Positions 1 to 6,258 of a DNA stretch of 6,258 bases are shown here, piece by piece; within the stretch, counting starts at the first letter, position 1; each line of letters begins with the position of its first letter. A model generated the notes under the pieces. The model was given only the letters and a program-made list of their open reading frames with translations, did not search any database and had not been told where the DNA came from. The DNA is taken from contig CAMWKA010000111.1 in the NCBI GenBank assembly GCA_947174725.1, positions 1-6,258 of the forward strand, given 5' to 3'. The translations under genes were made by a program, and so were the position numbers. Source of the stretch: an uncultured Lachnospiraceae bacterium. GTDB lineage: Bacteria; Bacillota; Clostridia; Lachnospirales; Lachnospiraceae.

Positions 1-691
1 CACCATCGGTGAGAAGCTTTCTGTCAGAAGATTTGAGAAGGTTAGTGGAGACGTCGTTGCGTCTTATATTCACGCCGGCGGAAGAATCGGCGTCCTTGTA
101 GCGGCAGACGGAGATTCCTCTGCGGAAGCGAAGGAAGCGCTTTCCAACGTCGCAATGCAGATTGCGGCTATGAATCCGCAGTATATCAGCAGGGCAGATA
201 TCTCCGCGGAAGAACTTGATAAATTAAGGGAAATTACGATCGACAGCGCTTTGAACGATCCTGCGTCTCTTCCTAAGCCGTTATTACAGAAATTGATCGA
301 TAAGGCGATCGGCGACGCAGTATGGAGTAAGGAAGATATCGATATCTACGAAGAGAAGAAGAGTAATATGAACTACTTATTCAACTTCCTTTCTAACGAG
401 GCAAAAAATGCGTTGGTTGAGCTGGCATTTGCCGACAAAACTTCCATCGTTTCTGATAAGATTTTCAGCGGTCTGGTGGAAGGACGTATCTCAAAGCAGA
501 TAAAAGAAATCAGTCTTTTGGATCAGACATATGTTAAGGCAGAAGATGGCAAGCAGACAGTTGCGCAGTACCTCAAAACAGTTTCCGGCAATCTGAAGAT
601 TACAAAGATGGTAAGATTTGAAGTCGGCGAAGGTATGGAGAAGAAGGAAGAGAACTTCGCTGAAGAAGTGAAAAAGCAGATGGGCGAATAA
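1..691 (+). CDS. tsf: Elongation factor Ts, 3' part (5' end outside window)
   Basis: EF-Ts is the cytoplasmic guanine-nucleotide exchange factor that regenerates EF-Tu-GTP during translation elongation. The open frame enters the window at base 2 with no start codon; 229 residues are visible. The visible start (GEKLSVRRFEKV, then SYIHAGGRIGVLV) matches the EF-Ts core domain, AMQIAAMNPQYISR follows, and the C-terminal module is present as SLLDQTYVK, KQTVAQYL and FEVGEGMEKKEENFAEEV. The first methionine of the uninterrupted frame (155) is internal and is not the start. Roughly the first 80 to 120 residues, including the UBA-like N-terminal domain, are missing. Between DISAEELDK and GLVEGR there are about 60 more residues than in E. 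coli EF-Ts, in the region of the coiled-coil protrusion; I believe related Clostridia share this, but cannot check. Identification is secure. Confidence 0.96.
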   Translation, partial: TIGEKLSVRRFEKVSGDVVASYIHAGGRIGVLVAADGDSSAEAKEALSNVAMQIAAMNPQYISRADISAEELDKLREITIDSALNDPASLPKPLLQKLIDKAIGDAVWSKEDIDIYEEKKSNMNYLFNFLSNEAKNALVELAFADKTSIVSDKIFSGLVEGRISKQIKEISLLDQTYVKAEDGKQTVAQYLKTVSGNLKITKMVRFEVGEGMEKKEENFAEEVKKQMGE

Positions 692-975: not shown

Positions 976-1134
976 GTGGAAGCAGCATTAAAAAATGACT
1001 ATCAAACTGCGTTAAATGAACAGAAAAAGGAAGTTCGTAATCTTGTAATGGCAGGATTAGAGCAGATGAAGGATGGGAAGACAAAAGACTTTAATACTGT
1101 ATGTGACAGATTGGAGAAGAAATACAAAGAATGA
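976..1134 (+). CDS. Putative small antitoxin of a type II toxin-antitoxin pair
   Basis: A 52-residue, charged, probably mostly helical protein (starts MEAALKNDYQTALNEQ, ends VCDRLEKKYKE). The start is GTG at 976: an in-frame TGA at 967-969 rules out anything further upstream, and AAAGGA (960-965) stands 10 bases before it. The stop overlaps the next gene's start as ATGA (1131-1134), the usual arrangement for translationally coupled antitoxin-toxin pairs. The C-terminal stretch GKTKDFNTVCDRLEKKY resembles the toxin-binding tail of RelB/Phd-like antitoxins. I see no complete ribbon-helix-helix or other DNA-binding domain, so self-repression is uncertain. The role is inferred mainly from position beside a recognisable ParE-like toxin; the family itself I do not name. 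It should bind and neutralise the toxin in the cytoplasm. Confidence 0.75.
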   Translation: MEAALKNDYQTALNEQKKEVRNLVMAGLEQMKDGKTKDFNTVCDRLEKKYKE

Positions 1135-1457
1135 GGCACTACCGAATTGAGATTACTGAGTTGGCGGAACAGGATTTAGAAAATGCTGGCGATCATATTG
1201 CATATAACTTGAAAAATCCGACTGCTGCTGTTAATACGGTAAATGGCATACGTGAGAAGATTAATTCTTTATCAGATTTCCCTGAAAGAAATGAATTAGA
1301 TGAGGATAAGGCGCTAGATGAGTTGGGTGTTCGCATGGATTACTACAAAAATTATAAGATATACTATATAATTTATGAGAACACCATATACATAATAAGA
1401 ATACTTCATATGTTAGTTGATAGCAAGGCATGGCTATATCGTGCGTTTGGCTTGTAA
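1131..1457 (+). CDS. RelE/ParE-superfamily toxin
   Basis: A 108-residue protein with the layout of the ParE/RelE toxin fold: an N-terminal strand and helix (YRIEITELAEQDLENAGDHIAYNL), a second helix with NTVNGIREKINSLSDFPER, then the strand segment YYKNYKIYYIIYE, and a C-terminal IIRILHMLVDSKAWLYRAFGL. The order of the LAEQDLE, FPER, YKIYY and RILHMLVDSK blocks is what identifies it. Family members either poison DNA gyrase (ParE) or cleave ribosome-bound mRNA (RelE); the sequence alone does not decide which, although the general look is nearer ParE. Its ATG overlaps the antitoxin stop by ATGA, so it is probably translated by coupling; a purine-rich GGAGAAG lies at 1113-1119, rather far upstream. 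Base composition is visibly more AT-rich than in the genes on either side, consistent with acquisition by transfer. The length is normal and the gene appears intact. Confidence 0.87.
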   Translation: MRHYRIEITELAEQDLENAGDHIAYNLKNPTAAVNTVNGIREKINSLSDFPERNELDEDKALDELGVRMDYYKNYKIYYIIYENTIYIIRILHMLVDSKAWLYRAFGL

Positions 1458-3089: not shown

Positions 3090-4727
3090 ATGGAAGGGAT
3101 CTTAAAACTTCTCTGGAATAGCGAAAACGGAATTTGTCAGTTGAAGAACAATAGCCAGCTGGCCTATACGGATGCTATGCAGTCTGACGGACTGGATGGT
3201 TTTCTGCGTCTTGTGGTAGAGGAGGATCGGGAGACTTATGAGGTATTTCTTCATGCTTTGAAAAATGGTCTGAAAGGTACAGCAGAGTTTGTACCGTTAC
3301 AGGATAACCATATGTCGGTATCCGTCCGTATGTATAAGGCGGACGGAAAGGATTCCTATCACAATACGCTTTGTTTTTTCCGAAAGGACGATAACGGCGC
3401 AGCCATACAGATGACGATGGTGATCTGTGAGATGACGGCGGAGGAGATCTACCGTATGCAGCTGGCGCAGACGATTACCAATGACAGCACGCCAGCCACG
3501 TTCCTGCAGGCGGCTCACGAGGTGATTCGTCAGGCTCCGGACAGGAAATATGCGCTGGTGCAGTTTGATGTTGCGAAATTTAAGATGATCAATGAGATGT
3601 ACGGGGAGCAGTTCGGGGATGAGATGCTGAACTTTTTTATTGAATCTCTGCAGGTGCTCCGTAATAAGGATCAGCTCTTTGTCCGGCTGACTGCGGACGT
3701 TTTTATGATACTGGTTCCCCATGAAGAAAGACAGGAAATATTGGATTTTATCGAGATGGTCAGGAAAGCGTTGTCGGGATATAAGGGAATCGATTATCAG
3801 TTGGTGTTTGGCGTAAGCTATGTTGAGGATGTCAATGGTATCCTCCGTAAATATGGTGACCGTGCCGCTATGGCAAGGCAGAGTATCAAGGGCAATGCGT
3901 TGCAGCATGTGGCATTTTATGAAAATAAGATGAAGGATATGATCTATAATAGAAAGTTTTTGGAGGATCATATGGAAAGTGCGCTGGAGAACCATGAATT
4001 TGTAATGTATCTTCAGCCGAAGTACAATATGGAGAACAACAGGATCGTCGGAGCGGAGGCGTTGGTACGCTGGGTCAGGAAAGACGGAAAAGTGGTACCA
4101 CCATCAGATTTTGTGCCGTTTTTTGAAAAGAACGGCTTTGTTACCAAGATGGATGCATTTATCTGGGAAGAGGCCTGTAAGCTGATCCGGGAGTGGATGG
4201 ATCAAGGGAAGGAAGTGCTCCCGATCTCAGTGAATATGTCCAGAAAGCATTTTCAGTCAGAGGATTATCTGGATACGCTAAGGCGTCTGATTGATACCTA
4301 TAGGATTCCGAAAGAATATCTGGAGATTGAAATTACGGAAACGGTGGATGAGAATGAGACCCATGATAATATCATGCGTTTGAAAGAAGAAGGATTTACG
4401 CTGCTGATGGATGATTTTGGTTCCGGTTACTCATCCTTAAATGTACTGAAGGATACGCATTTTGACATTATTAAGATCGATCGGGCATTTTTACAGGATT
4501 TCTTAGGATCGGACCGTGGTCAGAAGATCGTAGAAAACATTGTTCGTATGACAAGCGCGATCGGACTTCCCATGGTGGCAGAGGGGGTAGAGACGAAAGA
4601 ACAGGCAGAGTCGCTGCTCCAATATGGCTGCAATGTGGCGCAGGGATTTTATTACGCAAGACCGATGACAGTGGAGGATTTTCGGAAACGAAAAGAGGAA
4701 CAGGAAAATAAGGAATTGGCAGGATAG
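3090..4727 (+). CDS. Cytosolic EAL-domain c-di-GMP phosphodiesterase with degenerate GGDEF domain
   Basis: Predicted to hydrolyse the second messenger c-di-GMP to pGpG. The 545 residues fall into three parts. Residues 1-125 look like a PAS-type sensory module (EEDRETYEVFL, then a closing VICEMTAEEI). Residues 135-285 are a GGDEF fold (FDVAKFKMINEMYGEQFGDEML), but the active-site motif is TADVF (201-205), so no cyclase activity is expected. Residues 290-535 are an EAL domain with every usual catalytic or metal-binding position in place: E323 in EAL, N382 in SVNMS, E414 in EIT, D441-D442 in MDDFGSGYSSL, K462 in IIKIDR, E498 in AEGVET and Q518 in AQGFYYARP. No membrane segment or signal peptide is seen. 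The ATG at 3090 has GAGGA 6 bases upstream; the ATG at 3086 is out of frame. The gene has its own promoter and terminator. The degenerate GGDEF domain may sense GTP allosterically, as known for some composite proteins; this is inference. Confidence 0.92.
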   Translation: MEGILKLLWNSENGICQLKNNSQLAYTDAMQSDGLDGFLRLVVEEDRETYEVFLHALKNGLKGTAEFVPLQDNHMSVSVRMYKADGKDSYHNTLCFFRKDDNGAAIQMTMVICEMTAEEIYRMQLAQTITNDSTPATFLQAAHEVIRQAPDRKYALVQFDVAKFKMINEMYGEQFGDEMLNFFIESLQVLRNKDQLFVRLTADVFMILVPHEERQEILDFIEMVRKALSGYKGIDYQLVFGVSYVEDVNGILRKYGDRAAMARQSIKGNALQHVAFYENKMKDMIYNRKFLEDHMESALENHEFVMYLQPKYNMENNRIVGAEALVRWVRKDGKVVPPSDFVPFFEKNGFVTKMDAFIWEEACKLIREWMDQGKEVLPISVNMSRKHFQSEDYLDTLRRLIDTYRIPKEYLEIEITETVDENETHDNIMRLKEEGFTLLMDDFGSGYSSLNVLKDTHFDIIKIDRAFLQDFLGSDRGQKIVENIVRMTSAIGLPMVAEGVETKEQAESLLQYGCNVAQGFYYARPMTVEDFRKRKEEQENKELAG

Positions 4728-4791: not shown

Positions 4792-6177
4792 GTGGAAGAA
4801 AAAGAAAAGAAAAGCGGATTCTGGTATCAGGTGGCAAATTTTATCGTAAACAAGCGTAAGGCAATTGAGATTTTATTTGTCTGCGCAATTATTTACAGCG
4901 TCTTCTGCATCAATAAGGTGCAGGTCAATCAGGATATCACAAGCTACCTGCCAGGGGAAAGTGAGACCAGACGGGGGCTTTCCCTGATGGAGGAGCAGTT
5001 TGTCACCTATGGTTCCGCGAAGGTGATGTTATCAAATGTCACTTATGGACAGGCGGAGAAGCTTGCCGGACGGATGGAATTGCTGGAGGGTGTCAAATCT
5101 GCTGCCTTAGGTATGGATGAGGAACATTATAGCGGTACGAATGTACTGATCGAAGTAACGGTTGACGGCAGCGAAGAAGAGGAACACAGTATTCAGACTA
5201 TGGATGCGGTGAAGGAGCTGCTGACAGGATATGATTACTATATTTCGACGACCATCGGTGAGACACAGGAAAGTACGGAAAGTTTAAATCATGATATGAA
5301 TATCATTTTGGTGTTGGCGGTGGTTATCATCATTGCCGTACTGATGCTTTCCACCAAGGCGTATTTTGAGATCCCGGTGCTGCTGATTACCTTTGGTGTT
5401 GCCGCGATTTTAAATATGGGCACCAATTATTGGTTGGGGGAGATTTCCTCGGTTACCAAATCAATTGCCGTCGTTTTGCAGCTTGCTTTGGCAATCGACT
5501 ATGCTATCATTCTGTGCGACCGATATATGGAGGAGCACGAAACGATGGAATCTGTGGAAGCGGTGAAGGTGGCGCTCTCGAAAGCGATCCCGGAGATCAG
5601 CTCATCTTCATTAACAACGATTTCCGGTATGGTTGCCATGATGTTTATGCAGTTCAAACTGGGATATGATATGGGTATCGTGCTGGTCAAGGCAATCATT
5701 TTAAGTTTGATTTCTGTTTTCTTCCTGATGCCGGGAGTGATACTGATCTTCGCGAAGGGTATTGACCGGTCCCATCATAAGTGTCACGTTCCGAAGATCT
5801 CCTTTGTCGGGAAATTTGCGGCTGCAACCAAGTATATCATTCCGCCGGTTTTTATCATTGTTCTGGTAGGCGCGTTTATGATGTCCAGTAACTGTCGGTA
5901 CTTGTATGACGTAAATTCCGTGGAGAGCTCGAAAAAGACGCCGTCAAAGATTGCCAGAGAGAAGATCGGGGAGATCTTTGGATCGGAGAATCAGTTTGTC
6001 GTTATGGTGCCAAAGGGAAATTATGAAGCGGAAGCAAAAGTTCTGGCGGAGCTGGGAAAGCTTCCTTATGTATCGGATGTCCTTGGTCTGGCGAATCAGA
6101 CGATCAATGATGAATATTGTCTGACTGATAAGCTTACCCCAAGACAGTTTGCCGAGCTGACGGATCTGGATGTGTAG
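4792..6177 (+). CDS. MMPL/RND-type membrane transporter, N-terminal part; 3' end replaced by adapter
   Basis: A proton-driven permease-like protein of the MMPL/RND superfamily in the cytoplasmic membrane; the substrate (lipid, drug or other) cannot be told. From GTG 4792, 461 residues are open. Membrane segments are visible near residues 24-41, then an extracytoplasmic loop 42-168 (with DITSYLPGESETRRGL), then about 170-187, 191-210, 220-243, 272-288, 300-322 and, beginning the second repeat, 349-365, followed by the start of the second external loop. Segment four contains LAIDYAIILCDRY, with the Asp-Tyr pair (D236-Y237) that forms the proton relay in this family. Full members have two such halves and about 12 segments in roughly 700 or more residues, so about a third is missing. 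The apparent TAG stop (6175-6177) is inside sequencing-adapter sequence that starts by 6172, so the last reliable codon is the aspartate at 6169-6171. A TTG at 4765 would add 9 residues but lacks a ribosome site. Confidence 0.88.
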   Translation: MEEKEKKSGFWYQVANFIVNKRKAIEILFVCAIIYSVFCINKVQVNQDITSYLPGESETRRGLSLMEEQFVTYGSAKVMLSNVTYGQAEKLAGRMELLEGVKSAALGMDEEHYSGTNVLIEVTVDGSEEEEHSIQTMDAVKELLTGYDYYISTTIGETQESTESLNHDMNIILVLAVVIIIAVLMLSTKAYFEIPVLLITFGVAAILNMGTNYWLGEISSVTKSIAVVLQLALAIDYAIILCDRYMEEHETMESVEAVKVALSKAIPEISSSSLTTISGMVAMMFMQFKLGYDMGIVLVKAIILSLISVFFLMPGVILIFAKGIDRSHHKCHVPKISFVGKFAAATKYIIPPVFIIVLVGAFMMSSNCRYLYDVNSVESSKKTPSKIAREKIGEIFGSENQFVVMVPKGNYEAEAKVLAELGKLPYVSDVLGLANQTINDEYCLTDKLTPRQFAELTDLDV

Positions 6178-6204
6178 ATCTCGGAGGTCAACTAATCTTA
6201 AAAA
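6172..6204. other. Degraded copy of the Illumina P5-side adapter (artefact)
   Basis: GTGTAGATCTCGG at 6172-6184 is identical to the P5 part of the Nextera adapter read in reverse complement; A at 6185 replaces T, GGTC matches again, and the following bases diverge but keep ATC-TT at 6195-6199 and then run into A (6200-6204), as reads do after running off the adapter end. It joins directly to the transporter coding sequence. Confidence 0.85.
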
Positions 6205-6209
6205 CACAA

Positions 6210-6258
6210 ATACACATCTGACGATGCCGACGACTTAATAGGTGTAGATCTCGGTGGT
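6210..6258. other. Nextera transposase adapter with i5 index (artefact)
   Basis: ATACACATCT (6210-6219) is the inner part of the Tn5 mosaic end. GACGATGCCGACGA (6220-6233) follows, which differs from the standard adapter only by A for C at 6224. The 8 bases CTTAATAG (6234-6241) occupy the index position; the reverse complement CTATTAAG is, as I recall, Nextera XT index S518. GTGTAGATCTCGGTGGT (6242-6258) is the P5 part and runs to the last base of the window. The order and spacing match the adapter exactly. Confidence 0.95.

What the first reader, a model, noticed from the sequence alone, without database searches (positions are those of the whole stretch)
6172..6258. Contig end consists of Nextera sequencing adapter, not genome
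Mosaic-end bases, the Tn5-side adapter, an 8-base index and the P5-side adapter appear in the right order and spacing at 6210-6258, preceded by a degraded second copy from 6172. Adapter-containing reads were assembled into the contig. Anything annotated here would be spurious.
Basis: partly seen in the sequence, partly recalled or inferred. Interest (0 to 1): 0.8.

Follow-up and report, generated by a model that had tools for sequence, protein, structure and literature searches.

The report
Flow-cell primer read over genome
The last 48 bases of this contig are Nextera sequencing adapter, and the 39 bases before them are likely true genome and the flow-cell primer P5 read at the same time from one mixed DNA cluster, so the gene end seen there is false.

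Summary
6210-6258 is Nextera i5-side adapter (48 of 49 bases) with index S518. Adapters of the same library end 17 of 321 contigs of this genome. Four close relatives read on through the interrupted MMPL transporter gene, and its second half lies on another contig (C227) of the same genome.

The 'degraded second copy' at 6172 is more than a bad adapter copy. It fits P5 plus ten A in 30 of 39 bases and expected genome plus adapter in 24, but both superposed under two-colour base calling (G dark, A both dyes) in 35. That dye code fits best of all 12 possible. The sequence turns clean where P5 plus ten A would run out. The genome is itself P5-like there (14 of 18).

I infer that the P5 flow-cell oligo primed inside the fragment within one cluster. 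Elsewhere P5 plus A overwrites genome: in a viral contig 39 for 39 bases against all 74 well-anchored relatives, and in the lac promoter region of one E. coli record. One E. coli case is 2 bases off register, and the lac site is not P5-like. P7 keeps the reading frame in 4 of 5 cases. This is not biology, but perhaps an undescribed form of adapter contamination.

The parts
4792..6171 (+). 5' half of an MMPL-family transporter gene, genomic and cut by the contig end
   Evidence: Pfam MMPL 1.2e-21; 93-96% protein identity to G018, G008, G015, G022, whose frame stays open to codon 828-830; remainder on contig C227, which starts 139 bases after the equivalent of 6171
6172..6200 (+). Blend of expected genome and the reverse complement of the P5 oligo
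   Evidence: Two-colour union of both predicts 27/29; genome alone 21/29, P5 alone 22/29
6175..6177 (+). False stop codon (TAG) ending the listed 470-aa ORF
   Evidence: ORF list; the four closest relatives read on here, first base GAG instead of TAG
6201..6210 (+). First 10 bases of the Nextera mosaic end overlaid by the A run that follows P5
   Evidence: 8/10 are A as the model predicts; mosaic end alone 3/10; the two C that remain are C in the mosaic end
6211..6232 (+). Clean rest of the mosaic end and of the i5-side read-primer site
   Evidence: Part of the 48/49 match; 47/48 over 6211-6258
6233..6240 (+). i5 index CTTAATAG (S518 reversed)
   Evidence: Exact in 6 of the 8 i5-side tails that cover the index, the other two with one mismatch; listed in PMC7589761
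6241..6258 (+). Start of the P5 tail, cut by the contig end
   Evidence: Part of the 48/49 match

Best explanation
Bases 6211-6258 are Nextera i5-side adapter at a contig end, and bases 6172-6210 are likely two molecules of one sequencing cluster read at once: the normal fragment (genome to 6200, then adapter) and a shorter one (genome to 6171, then P5 oligo and its spacer). Inferred steps: the P5 oligo fixed to the flow cell would have primed at a P5-like site inside the fragment, making a shortened strand in the same cluster. Up to 6171 both strands agree, so the read is clean. For 39 cycles they differ, and two-colour chemistry would report the sum of the dyes (G gives way to any other base, C plus T gives A). 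When the short strand runs out it is dark, and the normal fragment reads clean again from 6211. A thinly covered assembly then likely extended the contig along such a read, which put a false stop codon into the transporter gene.
For: Adapter and index; 18 contig ends on 17 of 321 contigs carry i5- or i7-side adapter. The gene continues in four of four closest relatives and on C227. The union model fits 27/29, 8/10 and 47/48; the real dye code is the best of 12 (35/39, next 29/39); P5 start at 6172 is the single optimum (163/168, next 152). Log-likelihood -16.3 against -28.4 for P5 alone and -39.6 for genome plus adapter with the error pattern of other tails. Where exactly one molecule has G, the call is the other base in 7 of 7. 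0 of 200,000 shuffled P5 partners and 0 of 400,000 random genomic 39-mers, best 32, reach the observed fit. The site is 14/18 P5-like in G018 and G022; only 3 other such sites occur in 1,091,130 positions. Independent case: viral contig L190, 39-for-39 replacement against 74 of 74 well-anchored relatives of 79.
Against: 4 of 39 calls keep one component base instead of the union. The genome's own bases at 6172-6200 are unknown; G018 stands in (448/471 identical upstream), and with G008 and G015 the fit is 26/29 and 25/29. The best A-run length is a flat optimum: 82 of 87 for 9 and 10, but 81 for 4, 6, 8, 11 and 12. The insert end at 6200 coincides with the end of P5 for no reason I can give. 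Errors in 17 other adapter tails of this assembly go to A in only 42 of 95 and to G in 30, so not all noise here is dye addition. The lac case is not P5-like (1/9), and in E. coli D7 the register is 2 bases off. No reads were available.
Confidence: 0.68

Rival explanations
1. 6172-6210 is a degraded copy of adapter (P5 tail plus A run) with random errors, joined to a second adapter copy.
For: 22/29 plus 8/10 match.
Against: Nine mismatches, several of which are the relatives' genome bases; log-likelihood 12 units worse than the union. No mosaic end or index precedes it, and the following 48 bases are clean (1 error), which random degradation does not explain.
Confidence: 0.14
2. Assembler or read-merging software built a mosaic consensus from a genome read and an adapter read that overlap by their chance similarity.
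For: 37 of 39 bases equal one of the two sources; the genome is 14/18 P5-like there.
Against: The two remaining bases (A where the sources have T and C) are what dye addition predicts. It does not explain the in-register replacement by P5 plus ten A in other data sets.
Confidence: 0.14
3. 6172-6200 is genome with ordinary sequencing errors before a damaged mosaic end; P5 is not involved there.
For: 21/29 match to G018; other tails of this assembly are noisy too (95 mismatches in 1,068 bases, the worst 17 of 76).
Against: 15 errors in 39 bases between a clean stretch and a 47/48 stretch; the errors turn into P5 letters; log-likelihood 23 units worse.
Confidence: 0.03
4. A real genomic sequence, that is, a true early stop in the transporter gene.
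For: None beyond its presence in the contig.
Against: Library adapter with index at the contig end; the gene continues in the four closest relatives and on C227.
Confidence: 0.01

Closest known systems
Adapter read-through contamination of assemblies (Nextera)
   Same: Adapter with sample index at contig ends, from short inserts and untrimmed reads
   Different: Here a 39-base blend of genome and P5 lies before the clean adapter
Mixed clusters (PMC3163567, passages seen)
   Same: Two sequences in one cluster give a mixed signal, and the read may resemble one of them at some positions
   Different: There two distinct sequence populations merge in one cluster; here the second molecule is inferred to come from the same fragment by P5 priming inside it, so only 39 cycles are affected
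Two-colour no-signal G calls (PMC5217569, passage seen)
   Same: G is called where there is no signal, as in the G runs after some adapter tails here
   Different: Here darkness of the ended strand lets the other strand read clean again

Membership tests
Nextera adapter contamination | Mosaic end, i5-side primer site, 8-base index and P5 in order | tested here: met
   48/49 over 6210-6258; the first 9 bases of the mosaic end are not readable in the window
Nextera adapter contamination | Index belongs to a known set and is shared by other contigs of the assembly | tested here: met
   S518 and N714 listed in PMC7589761; i5 index exact in 6 of 8 tails that cover it, i7 index exact in 6 of 8
Nextera adapter contamination | Lies at contig ends | tested here: met
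   18 ends on 17 of 321 contigs, starting 22-95 bases from the end in the 17 tails measured besides the window
P5 in-register overwrite (proposed) | P5 follows genome directly, without read-primer site or index | tested here: met
   6172 in the window; 8 of 83 P5 occurrences in the 80 viral stretches held (of 110 found)
P5 in-register overwrite (proposed) | Genome is replaced, not interrupted, over about 39 bases | tested here: met
   L190: 74 of 74 well-anchored relatives of 79 give 39; E. coli NZ_OZ040716 no length change; exception E. coli D7, 2 bases longer; L181 too weakly anchored to count
P5 in-register overwrite (proposed) | Start site resembles the 3' end of P5 | tested here: inconclusive
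   Window 14/18, L190 9/9 at the start, hscC an 11-base shared run; not met in the lac case, 1/9
P5 in-register overwrite (proposed) | Both molecules present in one cluster | not testable with these tools
   Needs raw reads, best with intensities

The most novel reading that the evidence does not exclude
Illumina flow-cell oligos prime inside library fragments at oligo-like genome sites and overwrite about 39 bases (P5) or 34 bases (P7) of the read in register. This leaves a hidden class of false variants, broken genes and lost control sites in public genomes, complete ones included, which adapter trimming at read ends does not catch.
Probability: 0.55. Interest if true: 0.6.

Novelty: new variant of a known kind. 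Interest (0 to 1): 0.38.

Why it matters
The window's gene end is false and should be masked from about 6172. More widely, overwriting in register leaves contig length and reading frame almost intact, so screens that look for insertions or frameshifts would miss it, and cutting the adapter out would itself make a deletion. Examples in two complete E. coli records (lac promoter region and hscC) and in a same-genus genome (G029) suggest that such false variants sit in reference data. The predicted signature, P5 or P7 plus about ten A inside a contig with no read-primer site before it, is easy to screen for.

Tried and rejected
Plain second adapter copy, random errors, software mosaic and true genome: see rivals. 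A neighbouring cluster with its own full adapter was rejected because its mosaic end and index would scramble 6131-6171, where mismatches to G018 stay at 3 of 39, as upstream; this assumes that the contig there rests on the same reads. Priming by a 20-base PCR primer (its length is recalled) was set aside because the T calls at 6175 and 6181 lie in the part of P5 beyond it.

Cases that led nowhere: phage-collection searches around four interior P5 cases (L187, L181, L190, L244) and L178 listed no record covering 80% of the query. For L187 a viral scan returned only the contig itself; an ORF of 290 codons stays open across the 39 bases, and its agreement with the usual RmlA length is recalled, not tested. 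For L181, 4 relatives give 39, 2 give 36 and 5 could not be placed, all with weak flanks, so it is not counted. GenBank phages WFK, TAC1 and HMD-P3 carry interior P5, but no other record covers 80% of WFK or TAC1, and the best HMD-P3 relatives cover 92% in two pieces with 724 for 833 bases; not counted as overwrites. P5-like 18-mers in ten other relative genomes: G018, G001 and G015 are adapter at contig ends, G029 is discussed in the report, and the other six fit P5 in 20-23 of 39 bases; the reversed control pattern gave 11 hits, so these six are within chance.

Literature: 10 searches, of which three returned 0 papers. One search found 33 papers and listed 15; I looked at passages of one. 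I saw no description of in-register overwriting, which is weak evidence of novelty.

Full report
What is there. The closest named record holding the same gene is a Lachnospiraceae metagenome assembly (96% protein identity, isolate SC0353_S20_2). The last gene is an MMPL-family transporter. Its listed ORF ends at a TAG at 6175-6177.

The adapter. 6210-6258 matches the Nextera i5-side adapter in 48 of 49 bases. The index is the reverse complement of CTATTAAG, listed as S518 in PMC7589761 (passage seen). The i5 side ends 10 contigs: C275, C145, C61, C20, C249, C231, C137, C111, C251 and, as a 22-base match only, C100. The i7 side ends 7 contigs (C69 at both ends, C4, C3, C277, C269, C180, C152) with index GCTCATGA, listed there as N714. 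That makes 18 ends on 17 of 321 contigs. The index is exact in 6 of 8 i5 tails that cover it and in 6 of 8 i7 tails. The two other hits (C99, C54) are 14-base interior matches, which I take for chance. In three tails (L127, L137, L139) the adapter is followed by exactly ten A and then mostly G; L126 has nine A and ends, L128 five. G as the call for no signal marks two-colour chemistry (PMC5217569, passage seen). The nearest relative, G018, carries the same i5 index at contig ends, so it may come from the same project.

The gene goes on. In the four closest relatives (G018, G008, G015, G022) the frame stays open to codon 828-830. Contig C227 of the window's own genome carries the rest: its first 300 bases match G018 in 292, and it begins at the equivalent of window base 6311, 139 bases after 6171, in all four comparisons. 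The stop at 6175 is therefore not genomic.

What lies at 6172-6210. This stretch resembles the P5 tail (22 of 29) but has no mosaic end or index before it. G018's genome matches it nearly as well (21 of 29), because the genome is P5-like there: 14 of 18 bases in G018 and G022, 13 in G008, 12 in G015. In 1,091,130 positions of 80 relative loci, both strands, 5 sites reach 14 of 18; two of them are this very site in G018 and G022. Take genome plus adapter as one molecule and P5 plus ten A plus darkness as the other, and add their dyes (G none, T one, C the other, A both). This predicts 27 of 29, 8 of 10 and 47 of 48 bases in the three segments. With G008, G015 and G022 as stand-ins the first figure is 26, 25 and 27. 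Of 12 possible dye codes the real one fits best, 27 of 29 and 35 of 39; the next best values are 23 and 29. Sliding the P5 start gives one optimum at 6172, 163 of 168 against 152. The A run fits best at 9 or 10, but the optimum is flat (82 of 87 against 81 for 4, 6, 8, 11 and 12). No shuffled P5 of 200,000 reached 27, and no random genomic 39-mer of 400,000 reached 35, the best being 32. Against the model, 4 of the 39 calls keep one component base instead of the sum, and other tails of this assembly also show errors towards G (30 of 95, against 42 towards A).

How it most likely arose. The sequence before 6172 is clean, with 3 mismatches to G018 in 39 bases, as upstream, so a second unrelated molecule with its own mosaic end and index is unlikely. 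A molecule that shares the genome up to 6171 and then is P5 is what priming by the flow-cell P5 oligo at the P5-like site would make. This step is inferred. That the grafted Illumina oligo carries a ten-T spacer is recalled; PMC11123353 (passage seen) describes such a spacer on primers of its own design, and the ten A are seen in tails of this assembly. That the insert of the normal fragment ends at 6200, where P5 also ends, is a coincidence I cannot explain.

Independent cases. An exact scan for P5 in viral contigs gave 110 stretches; 80 were examined, with 83 occurrences. 23 follow Nextera and 50 TruSeq sequence by script, 2 more follow TruSeq by eye (L213, L214), and 8 follow neither: L178, L181, L183, L187, L190, L197, L237, L244. 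For L190, P5 plus ten A stands in place of exactly 39 bases against 74 of 74 well-anchored relatives; 5 of the 79 fetched were anchored too weakly. The nearest relative's flanks are 60/60 and 58/60 identical, and its replaced stretch begins with the 9 bases complementary to the oligo's 3' end. For L181 the flanks are too diverged to count (39 in 4, 36 in 2, no placement in 5). Of 5,426 complete E. coli genomes, 2 hold P5 plus A at this sensitivity. In NZ_OZ040716 it overwrites part of the lacI-lacZ gap without a length change; all 29 mismatches to strain SK1144 lie at locus positions 398-435, but the site is not P5-like. In strain D7 it lies in hscC, annotated as frameshifted, 2 bases longer than two relatives, at a site sharing an 11-base run with P5. 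In same-genus genome G029 a 39-base stretch starts with an exact P5 18-mer; P5 alone explains 31 of 39, and P5 or the nearest relative (G007) 38 of 39, against 31-33 for four misplaced relatives. Among the 19 relatives compared only G007 anchored on both sides, with a gap of 39. I take the gene for priA, a name recalled from its motifs. For P7, 14 interior stretches were found, 5 of them without adapter before them. In 4 of these 5 the longest frame is in the same phase on both sides of the 34 bases on at least one strand, as replacement predicts and insertion does not; in the fifth (L375) the phases differ on both strands.

Verdict. Its inner part is best read as true genome plus flow-cell oligo in one mixed cluster. 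Mixed clusters are known in print (PMC3163567, passages seen). I saw no description of overwriting in register by the flow-cell oligo in my 10 searches of the open library, which is weak evidence for novelty.

Noticed in passing
window 1131-1457: A ParE-like toxin ORF (Pfam ParE_toxin 2.4e-12); a short ORF just upstream may be its antitoxin (read by eye, not tested).
   Followed up: no
window 2-691, 1655-2935, 3090-4727: C-terminal part of elongation factor Ts cut by the contig start, a galactokinase/GHMP-type kinase and a GGDEF-EAL protein.
   Followed up: no
G029 contig 170, 39056-39094 (L158): P5-like stretch inside a gene that I take for priA; it fits P5 in 31 of 39 bases and P5 or a relative in 38 of 39, likely the same artefact.
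   Followed up: partly
L408 (E. coli D7, 401-439) and L409 (E. coli NZ_OZ040716, 401-436): Complete E. coli records with P5 plus A inside hscC (annotated as frameshifted) and in the lacI-lacZ gap.
   Followed up: partly
L373, L374, L375, L380, L384: Viral contigs with interior P7 plus at least ten A and no read-primer site before it.
   Followed up: partly
G018 contig ends (L145, L148-L153): The closest relative has Nextera i5-side adapter at contig ends with the same S518 index where it is readable; errors in 7 tails go to A in 31 of 40.
   Followed up: partly
GenBank phage records: 28 of 50,697 phage records match P5 plus A, many near record ends; they look like left-over adapter.
   Followed up: no
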